Assembly: GCF_000025625.1 (NCBI RefSeq)
Contig: NC_013922.1
Span: 2,790,001-2,854,000 of the forward strand
Direction: 5' to 3'
Origin: Natrialba magadii ATCC 43099
GTDB lineage: Archaea > Halobacteriota > Halobacteria > Halobacteriales > Natrialbaceae
Length of the DNA: 64,000 nt
A program made the translations under genes and the position numbers. The notes under the pieces are model-generated. The model searched no databases. It had not been told where the DNA came from and saw only the letters and a program-made list of their open reading frames with translations. The first letter of the stretch is position 1. The number at the start of each line of letters is the position of its first letter. This document shows, piece by piece, positions 21,834 to 59,647 of the stretch.

Positions 21834-21923
21834 GTTGGGCGCTGTTTTCTCGTTTCTAGGACAGAGGCAGCTGTTTCGCATACAGACTCTGTAGAATCGC
21901 TACACGCCGTCGTCTTACTCCGG

Positions 21924-22331
21924 TTAACACTCCGTATATCCAGTCGCGTCGAAATGGATCTGGTCCGTTTTCACGAGCCGGATTGTCGCTCTGGCACACT
22001 TATCCCTTGGATCAAGATTATGTGATATTGAATGTTCGACTGACTCATCATTGATTGTGACTTTCAACGTATAGTTTCCTGGGTCGTCAACAGGGTTCTC
22101 GAGAGTAGTCATATTCTCCGCTTCGATCGGTTGTGTAGCGGTGTACGTTTCAGCCCCGTCGTCATCCACAACAGCGACGGTCACATCGTGGTCGGTCTCG
22201 TCTTCGTTAAAGATTCGAATGGAGAGTATTCGTACCCCCTCGGTATCTCCGTTTGAGATACGCTCGAGACAACCTGAGATGGCGAGTATGCTGCCCAAGA
22301 CAGCAACAAGAGATGTACGCCGATCAATCAT
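21924..22331 (-). CDS. Small lipoprotein in AT-rich island 1
   Basis: A 135-residue exported lipoprotein: basic N-terminus (MIDRRTS), hydrophobic core and lipobox 'AISGC' with Cys at ~20. The mature part is beta-rich ('VRILSIRIFNEDETDHDVTVAVVDDDG'), like small immunoglobulin-like haloarchaeal lipoproteins. It follows the large exported protein with a 33-bp gap on the same strand, suggesting co-expression. Base composition is visibly less GC-rich than the flanking carA. A similar gene sits in the second island at 47411. Function unknown. Confidence 0.75.
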   Translation of the reverse strand: MIDRRTSLVAVLGSILAISGCLERISNGDTEGVRILSIRIFNEDETDHDVTVAVVDDDGAETYTATQPIEAENMTTLENPVDDPGNYTLKVTINDESVEHSISHNLDPRDKCARATIRLVKTDQIHFDATGYTEC

Positions 22332-22364
22332 CGGAACAGTAGTGCATAAAGATATCATCAAGAT

Positions 22365-24338
22365 TTATTGTGGCGGTGATGCAAATAGCGTGCTATCGTC
22401 GATACCGTCAACGATAGTATCTGCGATCAAATAGTGCGTGTAAGCCCGAAAGCCTTCTCGGTCGTCATTAGTCGCTTCAAATGCACCAAACGATTCAGTC
22501 CCGCTATTGAATTCTAGACGGGCCAGTTTCAGGAGGAACCGTTCAAGATCGCAGTTGATTGAGCTTACAGCTTGATTAAATCGATCTGCAGTGAGTTCCT
22601 GTTCGACTTCCAGCGTCGATATGTCGATTACATCAGGCAGATCACCATTAAGTTGCGATGCAGCTTTGAGATAGGCTAACGCGTAGTACAGATCTAACCC
22701 AGCTGCGGTGGTGTATCCAGTTTCGAATCGTTTCTGTGCTCGCTCAAAATACCCCTTAGCGTTTGATACTGCGTATTCGACATTACGATTGCTATCACCT
22801 GGTGCGTCTTCGAGTTTCTTTCGAACCATCCTTTCTATGTCCTTGTATCGTTCTAGAACGGCCTCTTTTTGAACGGGTCCATCTGGGGGACGGGTAGCCG
22901 TTTCGAGATATTGTTCGCCGTCATCGAGATTGCCATGCGCAAACTCGAGTGCAGAGTCCGCGTACTGGATCTGCTCCGGTTCGCTTACGGCGTCGAAAGA
23001 TAGAGCATCAAAAACGCTGTCGAGCCATGACTGGGCAGACAAAAGGCACTTTTCAATCTGTCCAGTTGTCGCGAGCACCTGATTGACTGATTCTCCTTGG
23101 TATTTAACTCGCTTGTGAGCAGCGGAAATTTTGCTTTCGACTTCTTTGGCTCGGCGTTTGATATTCTGTTCATTGATTTCGCCGTTAGCAGCGCTCTCTC
23201 GAGAAACACTCCCCTTCGAATGAGCCGTCGCACTTCGATAGGCGACTAATTCCCGGAACCGAGTTTCTGCTTCAGCAGCCTCTTCAAGGGCCGTTATCGC
23301 CTCATCTTCAAACCGACTATCCGTGCGGTGGTCGATAGCATCGACATGAGTTTCCGCTTTATCTTTTGCTTCACTGAGGTGTGCATCACTAATCTGGATC
23401 GGTTTTGCAACAGGGGACAACTCGCAACATGACCGGACTTGAACTTCAGGACATGGAGGTCCCCCAGGGCAATCATCAGTTTCGCAAATACTTTCGTCCT
23501 CCTGGTAGATACAGAAAGCACTACCCAGCGCTATCTGATGCCCTCGGTCTATTTCGAAGTGATGGCCGCTATCGGAATTATACATATAATGTCCGTTGTC
23601 AACTTCCCGATTCGCACCGACGTAGTTCCACCCAGCATCAATCCCACCGCCGCCGATTTCCCACTTCCAATCCGCGGAATGAGTGGTCGTATCGAAGTCA
23701 ATCATTGAGGGGATTGGGTCGGGATAACTAATCTCTGCTGACTTGCCTGATGCATCTCGATCAATATCGATCGAACTATCATCTCCAACGCTCGGCGGTC
23801 GAGGCGGTAGCCAAAATGGTGTTCCGTTGTCTAACGCGCTCCATGCAACGTCAAACGCATATTCGGCGAACGCAGTTTGTGGGAAATCGTCATTATTTTC
23901 ATTTTCAAAATATCCATAGATGCTATCGAGTTGTAGATCGACCATAGTAGAGCTAAGTTCTTCAATTGTGACGCGACTGTTGTTTGACGCTGGGAAATGG
24001 GTGGTATCTCGGGCACTATAATTTGTGTCGTCGTAGGCGTTTACCCAGGTCCCAGATTGCCAAGTGTAAAACGAGGCATCGGCGGCGTATTTTTTCCTTT
24101 CGTATCGAATTGCACCGCTATTTGAGACCTCACCGTCACCGGGCATGTCGATGACATAATCGAGTTGGTAATCGACATCATCCATCTCAACATTCAAGGT
24201 ATCAATGGTATTATTCAGATTGCTTTTGTCATCAGTAGCGCTGACACTCGCTTTTCCTGTAACTGATCCTAGTAGGATGCCACTGGTTGCTTTTAAAATG
24301 GCTCTTCTCCTATCCGAATGGTTATTGCCATCAACCAT
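22365..24338 (-). CDS. Large Tat-type exported protein with helical C-terminal half (AT-rich island 1)
   Basis: A 657-residue protein with a twin-arginine-like signal ('SDRRRAILKATSGILLGSVTG'), then an Asn/Asp/Ser/Tyr-rich beta domain (to ~residue 290) and a short Cys-rich patch ('CETDDCPGGPPCPEVQVRSCC'). The second half is strongly helical with regular hydrophobic spacing ('DEAITALEEAAEAETRFREL', 'KGYFERAQKRFETGYTTAAG'), probably a helical bundle or coiled coil. Codon use is AT-rich compared with neighbours, which points to acquisition. I do not recognise the family. It pairs with the lipoprotein gene downstream. Confidence 0.75.
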   Translation of the reverse strand: MVDGNNHSDRRRAILKATSGILLGSVTGKASVSATDDKSNLNNTIDTLNVEMDDVDYQLDYVIDMPGDGEVSNSGAIRYERKKYAADASFYTWQSGTWVNAYDDTNYSARDTTHFPASNNSRVTIEELSSTMVDLQLDSIYGYFENENNDDFPQTAFAEYAFDVAWSALDNGTPFWLPPRPPSVGDDSSIDIDRDASGKSAEISYPDPIPSMIDFDTTTHSADWKWEIGGGGIDAGWNYVGANREVDNGHYMYNSDSGHHFEIDRGHQIALGSAFCIYQEDESICETDDCPGGPPCPEVQVRSCCELSPVAKPIQISDAHLSEAKDKAETHVDAIDHRTDSRFEDEAITALEEAAEAETRFRELVAYRSATAHSKGSVSRESAANGEINEQNIKRRAKEVESKISAAHKRVKYQGESVNQVLATTGQIEKCLLSAQSWLDSVFDALSFDAVSEPEQIQYADSALEFAHGNLDDGEQYLETATRPPDGPVQKEAVLERYKDIERMVRKKLEDAPGDSNRNVEYAVSNAKGYFERAQKRFETGYTTAAGLDLYYALAYLKAASQLNGDLPDVIDISTLEVEQELTADRFNQAVSSINCDLERFLLKLARLEFNSGTESFGAFEATNDDREGFRAYTHYLIADTIVDGIDDSTLFASPPQ

Positions 24339-24728
24339 AGCTCAACATCAACATCACATCATATAAATCTTTAGTTCTTAGATATTAGAAATATTTTATC
24401 TATTGGAGCTCATATAAAACCTTGATCTGGTGAATACCAGTGAATACGGTTGGACATCTGGTTACAAATGACGGTGGTTCCATTTCGGGCGGAGAAAGTG
24501 CTATTTCTCGCAAGGCGGGTTGTTAGTTAGACGATTCCCTGCGACGGAAAGTCGAAACAGCCACCGGTGTGACAGTACACATTGTTCGCCAAACAGCACG
24601 TCGACAAACCAGATAAACCCGGTGGCCCGACACGACAGTGGGTTCGTCAATTGGGACACGTTGTGCTACCTCTTCCCCGGGGCGGCCTTGACAATAGTTG
24701 ACCGCAAAAGTACACCATTCGTTGATGC
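24339..24728. other. Intergenic region upstream of the island-1 exported protein
   Basis: 390 bp without a gene. The first ~100 bp (24339-24425) are very A/T-rich and must contain the promoter of the minus-strand exported-protein gene. The rest is intermediate in GC and lies beyond the SIMPL gene stop. No repeat, RNA gene or clear insertion end was found. Confidence 0.5.
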
Positions 24729-25502
24729 CTATGCCCCGTCGTCTGAGAACCCGTACTCAACCGTCGCGCTCGCCGTGACGCTCACCGGATCCGCATCGAT
24801 CTCGGTCTCGGGTGCGGCGTCAGCAGCGTCATCCGTCTCGTAGGCCACGTCGTGGCGAACCGTACTCACCCGCACGTCACTCGTCGTCACCGCCGTCGTG
24901 CCGGTGAGTTCGACGCCGCGATTCGAGGCGATGTGCTCGGCCTCCTCGTCGGCAGTCGCCAGTGCATCGTCGATTGCATCCTTTCGAAGTTCGGAACGGG
25001 TCTCGTCCCGAACCGTGAAGTTCACTCGACCAACGTCGTCAGCGCCGGCGTCGACCGCGGCGTCGATCACTTCGCCGACGCGCTCGACGTCGTCGAGTGT
25101 CACCTGATAGGAGTGGGTTCCGACGAACTCCTCGACCCCATCCTCGCGTCTCGCCGCCGGCGAGGGGCGGACGCTGTACCGTCCCTCTTCGACGTTGTCT
25201 TCGGGAATCCCCAGGTCGTCGAACGCCTCCCGGAGCTGCTCCGAGCGAGTCGCCAGATCGTCGCTCACCGCGTCGGCTGACTCGTCGACACTCTCGACAC
25301 CGAGACTCATCGTCGCCCGGTCGGGCTCCGTTTCGACCTCGCCGTCGGCAGTAACGGTGATCGTGTTGTCTGTATTTGTCGTGTCCGCATCTTCGCCCGC
25401 CTGCGCGGGATCGTCCGTACTCGAGAGCGCGTTGCCGAGACATCCTGCCGTCGTCGCTGCGACACCGACGGTCGATGCCGCGAGGAACTGTCGTCTGTCC
25501 AT
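24729..25502 (-). CDS. SIMPL (DUF541) domain lipoprotein
   Basis: A 257-residue exported lipoprotein. The N-terminus 'MDRRQFLAASTVGVAATTAGC' combines twin Arg with a lipobox Cys at ~21, as in Tat-exported haloarchaeal lipoproteins. After an acidic linker the SIMPL/DUF541 domain begins 'TITVTADGEVETEPDRATMSLGVES' (given in part) and ends 'VSVTASATVEYGF', the typical first and last strands of the family. Role is unknown; relatives sit in the bacterial periplasm. Start at 25502 rather than the upstream ATG because the signal peptide then begins at residue 1. Confidence 0.86.
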   Translation of the reverse strand: MDRRQFLAASTVGVAATTAGCLGNALSSTDDPAQAGEDADTTNTDNTITVTADGEVETEPDRATMSLGVESVDESADAVSDDLATRSEQLREAFDDLGIPEDNVEEGRYSVRPSPAARREDGVEEFVGTHSYQVTLDDVERVGEVIDAAVDAGADDVGRVNFTVRDETRSELRKDAIDDALATADEEAEHIASNRGVELTGTTAVTTSDVRVSTVRHDVAYETDDAADAAPETEIDADPVSVTASATVEYGFSDDGA

Positions 25503-47410: not shown

Positions 47411-47890
47411 TCACTTTTCTCTCCTAACTGGGTTAGCCATTATCGATTCATTACAATCTTGAGTGTAGTCGTCAGTATTGATCGGTTCCCAAACAGGTAT
47501 CCCGTTGCCATCTGACCCAATCCAATAGGCTATCTGGATAGCATGCTCACCCAACTTTTCCTCTGACTCGAATGTTATCCAATCTTCATCGGCATCCATA
47601 CGCATATGAACACGAAATTGACTCGGCTTGTCAGGCCAGTCTTGCGAAATCCATTTCTGTTGGTCTTGTCCATTTTCCTCGCGGCCATCGATAGTATACG
47701 AATTGAAGAGGACTTCTTCGTTCTCATACTCGACACGAATATGAACGGTATGCGATTGATTGTCTACATTGACAATCTCGATACAGCTGAGAATGGGTGG
47801 ATCCCTAGGCAGCATGGAAGAGACACACCCGGAAAGCAGGCTGGCAAACAGTGGAATCGTCGCTTGGAGGGTTGTTCGACGAGATAACAT
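47411..47890 (-). CDS. Small lipoprotein in AT-rich island 2
   Basis: A 159-residue exported lipoprotein: 'MLSRRTTLQATIPLFASLLSGC' (read in part) has basic start, hydrophobic core and lipobox Cys at ~22. The mature part begins 'ILSCIEIVNVDNQSHTVHIRVEYENEEV', similar in plan to the island-1 lipoprotein ('ILSIRIFNEDETDHDVTVAVVDDDG'). Sequence is AT-rich relative to the flanking uS10-like gene. Likely expressed with the exported protein 243 bp upstream, though each may have its own promoter. Confidence 0.75.
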   Translation of the reverse strand: MLSRRTTLQATIPLFASLLSGCVSSMLPRDPPILSCIEIVNVDNQSHTVHIRVEYENEEVLFNSYTIDGREENGQDQQKWISQDWPDKPSQFRVHMRMDADEDWITFESEEKLGEHAIQIAYWIGSDGNGIPVWEPINTDDYTQDCNESIMANPVRREK

Positions 47891-48133
47891 ACTTTTATGT
47901 TTTAATGAAGTTGTATTAAAACTTCTGTAGGATCTGGATGGCTGCTATCTGCGTATCCGTACTAACCAAGATCGTTCGCCCAGTTCAGTTCACTGTAGCA
48001 AGTTCGAGTGGTCTTAAAGCACGATATTAAGACCAAATTCGCTGACGCTTCGACCTAGCCCAATCCCGCATGTGTATTTTCAATATATAATGTATGAATT
48101 ATAGTTCAATAATCGAATAATATGGTGTCTAAG

Positions 48134-49264
48134 TCAGGGTTCATAGTCTGTCACTACATTATCGATTGAGTCAGATGGATAGTCATTATCAGAGTAATGT
48201 ATAAATTCGCTTTTGATTTCCCCATCAGTAATAAATATCGATGCAGAAGAATCTACCTTAAAAATACCAGCGTTACTGACTCTACAAGTTTCGTCACCAC
48301 CTCGATCGGCATGTGAAGTTGGAGATCCATATCCATATTCTGTTTCAACAGTTTTTCCAGGGTCAGACTGATTTTCGATTGAGTCCACTTCATTATTAGA
48401 GGTGTCAACTGTTACCTCACCATATGGTCCAGATGGACTAACCCCTACTGTTATATTACTTAGGCTGTATCCACCCGACTCATTCCGATTTGGTGAGAAA
48501 TCTACTAATTCTACATCTTCAGCCGAAGTTATTGAAGGGACCCAGTTCTGTTCCACAGTTGTTGACTTATTAAGTCCACGACCGTCATCTACTGCAGAGT
48601 CCTGATCATCAAGGTATGTTCCTGGCCATACATATCCTGACAAACCGCAAGCGTACTCTATTATATCATCATCATCCGGATGGTAATCTTCACCACGATA
48701 CACGTTCATATTCATATCAATACGACCACTAACGTATTCATTACCGTCAACATCTTCACTATCTACATAGACATGATCTGCAAAATTACCTATCTCATCC
48801 CACCCATCATCAGGATCAACTGAGGCACTACCCACGGATGCCACGTTTACACCGGCGACATCTGTTTTAGCCTTCTCAACCACTTCTTCGGCACCTGATT
48901 CACCCGGGCCAAACGGCGCTGACCAGAACCGTTCCGTAGGCGATTTTTTCTTCCATTCGACATAATATGCGACAGTATCTTGCCGATTCTGCTCCTCAAA
49001 TCTTTTTTCTGAGTCAATTACGTGTACGCTCTCACCTTCAGATTTTGGTAATGAAAGAATCACATTCCGTGCATACGCTACATGTCCTTTGGTAATTCCG
49101 TCACCGTTTGGTTTGGTGATGAGCAGTCCATTTTCGGTTTCTATTGTACTCAATCCGGAATTGGACTTTGCCACACTGGTTCCAGGCACTGTACTTAGGC
49201 CTATAAGGGCTGTTCCGGTTGCAGCGATACATTCTCTCCTTCCGAATAGTCTTTCATTCTGCAT
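48134..49264 (-). CDS. Tat/Sec-exported protein, unknown function (AT-rich island 2)
   Basis: A 376-residue protein with a twin-arginine-like leader ('LFGRRECIAATGTALIGLST'), then an Asp/Asn/Ser/Tyr-rich mature region rich in predicted beta structure ('GNEYVSGRIDMNMNVYRGEDYHP', 'GYSLSNITVGVSPSGPYGEVTVD'). No domain recognised. Only a few Cys. Base composition is one of the most A/T-rich in the window, matching island 1. Probably a secreted or surface protein of strain-variable type. Confidence 0.75.
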   Translation of the reverse strand: MQNERLFGRRECIAATGTALIGLSTVPGTSVAKSNSGLSTIETENGLLITKPNGDGITKGHVAYARNVILSLPKSEGESVHVIDSEKRFEEQNRQDTVAYYVEWKKKSPTERFWSAPFGPGESGAEEVVEKAKTDVAGVNVASVGSASVDPDDGWDEIGNFADHVYVDSEDVDGNEYVSGRIDMNMNVYRGEDYHPDDDDIIEYACGLSGYVWPGTYLDDQDSAVDDGRGLNKSTTVEQNWVPSITSAEDVELVDFSPNRNESGGYSLSNITVGVSPSGPYGEVTVDTSNNEVDSIENQSDPGKTVETEYGYGSPTSHADRGGDETCRVSNAGIFKVDSSASIFITDGEIKSEFIHYSDNDYPSDSIDNVVTDYEP

Positions 49265-58747: not shown

Positions 58748-59647
58748 TCACGCGCGCGTTTTTGCGACCGATCGCTGGATGTGAGTTCGGAGTGCATCTG
58801 TTGCGAGCGATCCGGTGACGTGCCCTTTCTCAAGGATGCCAAGAGTACGTCCTTCGTAGGCCGATCGTTGTGTTTCGAACTCGATTATTCTGTCGTAGCG
58901 AGCAAGCAGCGGGTCGCAGTTGTCCGCATCGTTGCTGGTGAAAGCGTCCGCAAAGTCGAGGGCGGTACGTAATACCGCTGGATTCGTTCGTGCGGAGACG
59001 GCCGTCACGTTCCGATAAATAGACGATACGAACATGTCTCCCAGGTTCGCCCCGGCAAATATCGGGACGTACCGATCGACACCCCCATAATAGGCGCGGT
59101 GGAGATTGACAGCCCAGCCACCGAGGCTGATGCCCGCAGCAAGGATGGCAGGGCAGCCTGTGTCTCGCAATCGGCCGGTCAGTGCCTCGATGAGCGAAGC
59201 TGATGTGGCGAGCATTCCAACGAAGTTTTCGAGGTCGTTCATCGCCCGTATATACTCTCTATTCGAACGATCGTGAAACGGCGCTCGAAGGGCAATCAGG
59301 TTGAGATTGCTGTCGAAGTTCGTCTCGAAGAGTCGCTGAAACGAGTTCGAACTGAACCGCCCAAAGTCAAACGGTTGTTCGCCGCTTCCATGATGATACA
59401 GCAGCGTCGGCGCGTCTCTCCCTCGCCACTGGGAGACGAGATATGCTGCCTGAAATTCTCCAATTGGAGTGGATGCAGAGACGTCCTGAACACCCCCGGT
59501 TCGAATGTTCTCGATATCGATCGTCGTATCACTGACGACGTCACCGATCGGAGCGCTGGAAACCGACTGGGAAAAGAACCTGGAATTCCGCAAGAGTAAC
59601 CCACTCATCGAGATCGTTGCAACGTCGATGAGTTCGTGTCTGTTCAT
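58748..59647 (-). CDS. Alpha/beta hydrolase
   Basis: A 299-residue hydrolase. 'APTLLYHHGSGEQPFDFGRF' provides the HG oxyanion loop, and 'ILAAGISLGGWAVNLHRA' the nucleophile elbow (G-x-S-x-G) with Ser; 'ILEKGHVTGSLATDAL' likely bears the catalytic His. Its codon use is slightly less GC-rich than the neighbouring core genes. The start overlaps the stop of the DUF2892 gene (ATGA), so they form one unit. Substrate unknown. Confidence 0.82.
   Translation of the reverse strand: MNRHELIDVATISMSGLLLRNSRFFSQSVSSAPIGDVVSDTTIDIENIRTGGVQDVSASTPIGEFQAAYLVSQWRGRDAPTLLYHHGSGEQPFDFGRFSSNSFQRLFETNFDSNLNLIALRAPFHDRSNREYIRAMNDLENFVGMLATSASLIEALTGRLRDTGCPAILAAGISLGGWAVNLHRAYYGGVDRYVPIFAGANLGDMFVSSIYRNVTAVSARTNPAVLRTALDFADAFTSNDADNCDPLLARYDRIIEFETQRSAYEGRTLGILEKGHVTGSLATDALRTHIQRSVAKTRA

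What the first reader, a model, noticed from the sequence alone, without database searches (positions are those of the whole stretch)
21924..24338. AT-rich secretion island 1: lipoprotein plus large Tat-type protein
Between carA and the SIMPL gene lies ~2.4 kb with clearly lower GC than its neighbours. It codes a 657-residue Tat-type exported protein (beta-rich N-half, Cys-rich patch, helical C-half) and, 33 bp later, a small lipoprotein. The pairing suggests a surface complex, with the lipoprotein as anchor or partner. I cannot assign a family to either.
Basis: partly seen in the sequence, partly recalled or inferred. Interest (0 to 1): 0.55.

Follow-up and report, generated by a model that had tools for sequence, protein, structure and literature searches.

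The report
Halocin-like protein with candidate immunity lipoprotein
A salt-loving archaeon carries, in a small AT-rich insertion, a gene for a secreted protein next to one for a small membrane-tethered protein; the same arrangement surrounds relatives of a known archaeal antibiotic protein, so the pair may be a weapon plus the shield that protects its owner.

Summary
22365-24338(-) encodes a 657-aa Tat-exported protein and 21924-22331(-) a 135-aa Tat-lipoprotein, 33 bp apart. GC is 0.42-0.52, third-codon GC is abnormal, and all six other genomes of the genus lack the block between carA and the SIMPL gene. The large protein is rare: 4 of 391 other genomes of the order hold it, and all four loci have a small Tat-lipoprotein within 600 bp. 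The window holds a second such pair (47411-49264) with an unrelated large protein. The lipoprotein belongs to an unnamed beta-sandwich family. Members of it, or of a second kind of small lipoprotein, also flank homologues of halocin H4 (6 of 6 intact loci; background 7 of 200 genes, Tat genes 1 of 57). This genome has two halocin-H4-like genes, both beside family members. I read the block as a halocin-like secreted effector with a lipoprotein that probably protects the producer. No sequence kinship between the 657-aa protein and halocin H4 was found, and lipoproteins of this effector family do not form one clade, so partners may have been swapped. The anchor reading is weaker but not excluded. 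No activity is shown.

The parts
22365..24338 (-). 657-aa Tat-exported protein ('big'): N-half of unknown fold, Cys-rich linker (about residues 276-305), all-helical C-half; proposed halocin-like effector
   Evidence: ORF; homologues in 4 of 391 other genomes; model, C-half only
21924..22331 (-). 135-aa Tat-lipoprotein ('lip1'), mature 8-strand beta-sandwich with a C-terminal Cys pair; proposed immunity lipoprotein
   Evidence: ORF; model mean pLDDT 87.5, mature domain about 93-98; fold matches; family HMM
24361..24367 (-). TTTATAT element about 26 nt before the start codon of the 657-aa gene; would give a near-leaderless transcript
   Evidence: read directly from the sequence; inference from usual archaeal promoter spacing, not tested
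21841..24735 (.). block absent from the six other genomes of the genus (variable slot between carA and the SIMPL gene)
   Evidence: blastn of window flanks against L036-L041; no flanking repeat seen
48134..49264 (-). second cassette: 376-aa Tat-exported protein ('big2'), unrelated in sequence to the 657-aa protein
   Evidence: ORF; homologues; GC3 0.31
47411..47890 (-). second cassette: 159-aa Tat-lipoprotein ('lip2') of the same lipoprotein family
   Evidence: ORF; mature-domain HMM that had it in its training set; tree

Best explanation
The block is a horizontally acquired effector-immunity cassette of haloarchaea. The 657-aa protein is exported folded by the Tat pathway and acts outside the cell against competing haloarchaea, as halocin H4 is reported to do. 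The small lipoprotein stays tethered to the outer face of the producer's own membrane and blocks the effector there, either by binding it or by shielding its target. Shown: Tat and lipoprotein signals by sequence, genomic linkage well above background, sporadic presence, a shared mature lipoprotein domain, and the same arrangement around halocin H4 homologues including two in this genome. Inferred: export, toxicity, target, and protection by the lipoprotein.
For: (1) Linkage: small Tat-lipoprotein within 600 bp in 4 of 4 other 'big' loci, 6 of 6 intact halocin H4 homologues and 13 of 20 'big3' loci, but 1 of 5 other 'big2' loci; background 7 of 200 other genes in the same loci, and 1 of 57 other Tat-signal genes. 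(2) Halocin H4 homologues: seven genomes at E <= 2.5e-8, 54% identity for the best; the one in this genome (G000:C1 near 1701080) is followed 17 bp later by a lipoprotein whose mature domain matches an HMM trained without any halocin-linked member (E 5.2e-6 among 1634 proteins); the one in L212 matches at 5.1e-4. (3) Converse test: a lipoprotein paralogue of this genome (G000:C1 near 2117340) has, 575 bp away, a 389-aa Tat protein that matches the halocin H4 HMM at E 6.5e-8. (4) Lipoprotein subtype follows effector type for big3 (2 changes, 0 of 500 shuffles as low) and big2 (98% clade). (5) Orphans: 4 of the 22 family members at E < 1e-8 in this genome sit next to a Tat effector, the rest are alone, as expected for orphan immunity genes. 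(6) Very low GC and sporadic presence, as for mobile conflict genes.
Against: No detectable sequence kinship between the 657-aa protein and halocin H4 (profile-profile p 0.24, 0.048 and 0.026, the last two on 14-20 columns). The lipoproteins of the four 'big' loci in the tree do not form one group (4 changes, no better than any shuffle), which is not what a tightly cognate pair should show. Four of the six halocin-linked lipoproteins fall outside the lip family by mature-domain HMM (E 0.15 or worse). Four of five other big2 loci have no lipoprotein. One lip-family gene lies beside a subtilase. Halocin H4 itself: two deletion studies found that halH4 mutants still inhibit an indicator strain (passage of PMC6759562), so its role as main antimicrobial is open. 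The N-half of the 657-aa protein could not be modelled.
Confidence: 0.5

Rival explanations
1. Surface complex: the lipoprotein anchors the large Tat protein to the membrane, and the complex serves adhesion, binding of a polymer or a similar surface role.
For: Linkage of the pair in all four other loci; same strand and 33-68 bp spacing in the window and in L014/L015; beta-sandwich and helical-repeat folds are common in surface proteins.
Against: The lipoprotein family is mostly found without any large Tat partner; the partners are several large proteins without detectable kinship; the order and strand vary (L013 upstream, L016 convergent, most halocin H4 loci on opposite strands); halocin H4 is a released protein and needs no anchor (literature).
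Confidence: 0.2
2. General guard: the lipoprotein family inhibits, folds or stabilises secreted enzymes (for example proteases) at the cell surface, and the large protein is a secreted enzyme or binding protein without a role in conflict.
For: A lip-family gene lies next to a subtilase in L109 (Pfam Peptidase_S8 E 6e-42); the transthyretin/Ig-like fold suits an inhibitor or chaperone.
Against: No enzyme family is reached by the large proteins; apart from that subtilase, halocin H4 homologues are the only partners of a known kind; sporadic AT-rich cassettes are more typical of conflict genes (inference).
Confidence: 0.2
3. Cargo of an AT-rich island: two exported proteins travel together by chance, without a functional link.
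For: Strong AT bias of the block and variable content of the carA-SIMPL slot in sister genomes; lip partners of the 'big' family do not cluster.
Against: 4 of 4 loci against 7 of 200 background genes and 1 of 57 Tat genes; a second pair of the same make-up in the window.
Confidence: 0.07

Closest known systems
Halocin H4 (HalH4, Haloferax mediterranei, HFX_5264) and homologues
   Same: Tat-type signal, large exported protein, AT-rich in this genome, sporadic, small Tat-lipoprotein next door in 6 of 6 intact homologous loci
   Different: No detectable sequence kinship to the 657-aa protein; HalH4 relatives are 312-389 aa without the helical C-half; immunity of HalH4 is not described in the papers found
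Halocin C8 (production and immunity from one gene; recalled, and its title seen in the reference list of PMC12893001)
   Same: Haloarchaeal secreted antimicrobial with dedicated immunity
   Different: Immunity there is part of the same precursor; here it would be a separate lipoprotein
Bacterial polymorphic toxin systems with immunity genes (PMC3482391, search listing only)
   Same: Modular effectors, small adjacent partner, orphan partners, horizontal spread
   Different: No known toxin domain, no dedicated delivery machine seen; the 'big3' relatives share an N-domain with differing second parts, but the window protein lacks that N-domain
VARTIG modules of Thermococcales (PMC8416519, abstract)
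   Same: Variable archaeal modules of a large protein with smaller downstream genes, function unknown
   Different: Different order of archaea, Ig-domain large protein; no sequence link tested
DUF357 (archaeal three-helix domain)
   Same: Residues 490-566 resemble its fold (Z 10.8-11.5 over 71-80 residues, rmsd 1.7-3.5; weak HMM E 0.0061 in the L014 homologue)
   Different: Helical bundles can match by chance at such Z; below Pfam's cut-off; DUF357 proteins are small and have no Tat signal as far as I recall

Membership tests
Halocin H4 family (657-aa protein) | sequence kinship to halocin H4 | tested here: not met
   hhalign p 0.24 against the recalled sequence; 0.048 and 0.026 against the homologue profile over 14-20 columns
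Halocin H4 family (657-aa protein) | Tat-type signal peptide | tested here: met
   RRRAILKATSGILLG near the N-terminus, by eye; export itself not tested
Halocin H4 family (657-aa protein) | growth inhibition of other haloarchaea | not testable with these tools
   needs assay
Haloarchaeal lip family (defined here; lip1) | Tat-lipoprotein signal and homologous mature domain | tested here: met
   lip1 mature domain E 1.5e-22, but in the training set; matches by lip1 alone in 46 of 392 genomes at 1e-5, signal included
Immunity protein | gene adjacent to its effector | tested here: met
Immunity protein | co-inheritance with the cognate effector | tested here: inconclusive
   yes for big2 and big3, no for big
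Immunity protein | protects against the effector | not testable with these tools
   needs assay
Polymorphic toxin system | constant N-terminal delivery part with exchangeable C-terminal toxin domain | tested here: inconclusive
   seen in part for big3 (N-domain with separate or fused second part); the 657-aa protein has no such N-domain, but its two halves look like separate genes in G189

The most novel reading that the evidence does not exclude
One haloarchaeal lipoprotein superfamily is the shared immunity system against a whole arsenal of Tat-exported halocins of at least three or four families (halocin H4 type, the 657-aa type, the 376-aa type and the two-part 'big3' type). The window carries two of these weapons, the genome at least four, and about 18 orphan immunity lipoproteins that would protect it from the weapons of neighbours, with partners exchanged between weapons.
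Probability: 0.35. Interest if true: 0.85.

Novelty: new variant of a known kind. Interest (0 to 1): 0.6.

Why it matters
Protein halocins have been known for decades, but I found no described immunity gene for halocin H4. If the lipoprotein family is that immunity, then halocin-type weapons can be found in any haloarchaeal genome by looking for the lipoprotein's neighbours, and two open questions (how producers survive, and how many halocin families exist) become directly testable.

Tried and rejected
Family look-ups of both proteins: nothing above cut-offs; the same for the other large proteins (the subtilase of L109 apart) and for the lipoprotein family. Scans of genome contigs and viral contigs with the single protein and with a 3-row alignment: no relative confirmed. 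Plasmids: no match to either protein; the big3 query found three Halorussus/Natrinema records.

Structure of the 657-aa protein from 6 rows: mean pLDDT 49.4, only the helical half usable; its fold matches beyond the DUF357-like segment are ordinary helical bundles. Idea that the N-half is a halocin H4 fold, suggested by eye from a similar order of helix and W-rich strand: not supported by profile comparison or reversed controls; big2 against the big3 second part is the only pair with a hint (p 0.0074 against 0.34-0.43 for reversed sequences).

Fold of lip1: transthyretin-like/Ig-like sandwiches at Z 8.5-9.2, rmsd 2.6-3.2 over 86-96 residues, which says nothing about function; viral library: only weak, mostly uncharacterised matches. 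Mobile-element signature at the island's ends: no repeat found. Halocin H4 record of H. mediterranei: not in the collections under two accession numbers, nor by primer or protein search of plasmids; its own neighbours were therefore not seen.

Caveats of counts: the lip HMM includes the signal peptide, and signal-only matches to larger lipoproteins reach about 2e-5 to 5e-6, so the mature-only HMM was made; that HMM was trained on the lipoproteins linked to big, big2 and big3 (L173's left out), so only its matches to halocin-linked and orphan members are independent. Of 24 places, lying in 22 loci with the query's own, 20 further loci were fetched; one weak locus in G119 was not. L173's lipoprotein counts among the 13 but is not of the lip family by the mature-only HMM. 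G347 and G140 are near-identical, and so are some orphan loci. For the tree L015, L173 and four halocin-linked lipoproteins were left out. Gene calls in fetched loci come from a simple ORF chooser of my own.

Full report
What is there. On the minus strand a 657-aa Tat-type protein (22365-24338) is followed after 33 bp by a 135-aa Tat-lipoprotein (21924-22331). The block's GC is 0.42-0.52 in 500-base windows against 0.61 for the window, and third-codon GC is 0.44 and 0.51 against a median of 0.76. In the six other genomes of the genus the flanking carA and SIMPL genes match but the block is missing; the slot is nearly empty in G303 and G223 (about 100-115 bp between the genes) and holds other genes, among them larger lipoprotein genes, in G362, G368, G243 and G276. 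No repeat marks the ends. A TTTATAT element lies about 26 nt before the start codon, as for a near-leaderless archaeal transcript (inference).

Relatives of the large protein. A search of 392 genomes of the order with the 657-aa protein finds 11 at E <= 0.001. Own genome apart, four are true relatives: G075 (40%, full length), G347 (35%, full length), G140 (nearly the same gene as in G347, split by about 1.7 kb of inserted DNA with a 327-aa ORF) and G147 (43%, C-terminal fragment only). The other six match only parts of the helical half. None of the six other genomes of the genus has it. All four relatives have a small Tat-lipoprotein close by, at 558, 68, 68 and 131 bp. In G189 the two halves appear as two adjacent genes: an N-half-like gene (HMM E 0.0034) and a helical-half-like gene 2 bp downstream.

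A second pair. The window's other AT-rich block has the same make-up: a 376-aa Tat protein (48134-49264) and a 159-aa Tat-lipoprotein (47411-47890). Its large protein has 5 relatives in 383 other genomes: in G024 a broken copy lies beside a close relative of the lipoprotein (51% identity over 117 columns) in swapped order; four more distant ones have no lipoprotein, and three of these have an AT-rich ORF of 71-77 aa, with membrane-helix-like stretches, downstream on the opposite strand (its function was not tested).

The lipoprotein family. lip1 alone finds relatives in 46 of 392 genomes at E <= 1e-5, mostly solitary genes. One relative, in G249, lies 12 bp after a 432-aa AT-rich Tat protein ('big3'). 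Searching with that protein gave 17 of 384 genomes. Of 20 further loci fetched, 13 have a small Tat-lipoprotein within 600 bp, two more have a homologue with an uncleaved N-terminal anchor, and one more lies at 686 bp. In at least six of these loci the protein is encoded as two overlapping genes: a Tat-exported part of about 165-215 residues and a second part without a signal.

The link to halocins. By eye the large proteins recalled halocin H4, so I searched for halocin H4 homologues: seven genomes at E <= 2.5e-8, including two of this genus at 53-54% identity (one copy broken, G303) and this genome itself at 26%. All six intact homologues have a small Tat-lipoprotein within 17-187 bp; the broken one does not. 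Two of the six lipoproteins, those in this genome (E 5.2e-6) and in G059 (E 5.1e-4), match the mature-domain HMM made without any halocin-linked sequence, where the first matches outside lipoproteins come at about 0.4-1; the other four are a different kind of small lipoprotein (E 0.15 or worse). From the other side, of 22 family members at E < 1e-8 in this genome four lie next to a Tat effector: the two window pairs, the halocin-H4-like gene, and a 389-aa Tat protein 575 bp from a lipoprotein, which matches the halocin H4 HMM at E 6.5e-8.

Controls. In the same loci 7 of 200 other genes have a small Tat-lipoprotein within 600 bp, and 1 of 57 other genes with Tat-like signals (that set includes larger lipoproteins and a few doubtful signals, and some loci of close relatives). 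The lipoprotein tree (45 rows, quick method, many long branches) groups big3 partners (2 changes, 0 of 500 shuffles as low) and big2 partners (98%), but the four partners of the 657-aa family are scattered, among orphans or, in G075, with a big3 partner. So the large protein keeps a lipoprotein partner but not the same lineage of it.

Structure. lip1 is predicted well (mature domain about 93-98 pLDDT): eight strands, a transthyretin/Ig-like sandwich. The large protein's C-half is helical with a DUF357-like bundle at residues 490-566; its N-half is not modelled. Profile comparison finds no significant kinship among the N-half, big2, big3 and halocin H4, with a hint only for big2 and big3. I therefore do not file the 657-aa protein as a halocin H4 family member; I say it may work like one.

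Literature. Halocin H4 is described as secreted and as making the cell surface rough with pinholes, and mutants without it still inhibit an indicator strain (passages of PMC6759562). A 2026 paper describes protease-activated antagonistic precursors in H. mediterranei (PMC12893001, abstract and passages). Searches for halocin H4 or halocin with lipoprotein gave no paper, and archaeocin with immunity and lipoprotein gave two that by their listed titles and abstracts are about other things; the library lacks most subscription papers.

Verdict. The finding is real and richer than first described: one of at least four cassettes in this genome in which a Tat-exported protein is paired with a member of one lipoprotein family. 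The best reading is halocin-like effector plus immunity lipoprotein (0.5); anchor and general guard are the main rivals.

Noticed in passing
47411-49264: Second AT-rich pair of the same make-up (159-aa Tat-lipoprotein and 376-aa Tat protein); its GC3 values are among the three lowest in the window.
   Followed up: yes
L213:4080-5469 (G000:C1 near 1701080): Halocin-H4-like gene of this genome with a lip-family lipoprotein 17 bp downstream, AT-rich.
   Followed up: yes
L115:4841-7121 (G000:C1 near 2117340-2119620): Second halocin-H4-like Tat protein (389 aa) near a lip-family lipoprotein.
   Followed up: partly
L161, L165, L168, L170, L171, L174: big3 effectors encoded as two overlapping genes, only the first with a Tat signal, fused elsewhere; the second part may travel with the first through the Tat pathway.
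   Followed up: partly
L130:5229-5444, L131:3904-4119, L132:5175-5408: AT-rich 71-77-aa ORFs with membrane-helix-like stretches beside big2 relatives that lack a lipoprotein; possible alternative partner.
   Followed up: no
L109:4712-7063: lip-family lipoprotein downstream of a Tat-exported subtilase (Peptidase_S8 E 6e-42).
   Followed up: partly
L043:4372-5449 (G000:C1 near 1850870-1851950): lip-family lipoprotein 40 bp after an AT-rich 203-aa ORF without a clear signal; possibly a worn cassette.
   Followed up: no
58748-59647: 299-aa exported-looking protein with lower GC (0.55) and GC3 of 0.61.
   Followed up: no
L015:8113-9831 (G140): Insertion of about 1.7 kb with a 327-aa ORF splitting the homologue of the 657-aa gene; the near-identical gene of G347 is intact.
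   Followed up: partly
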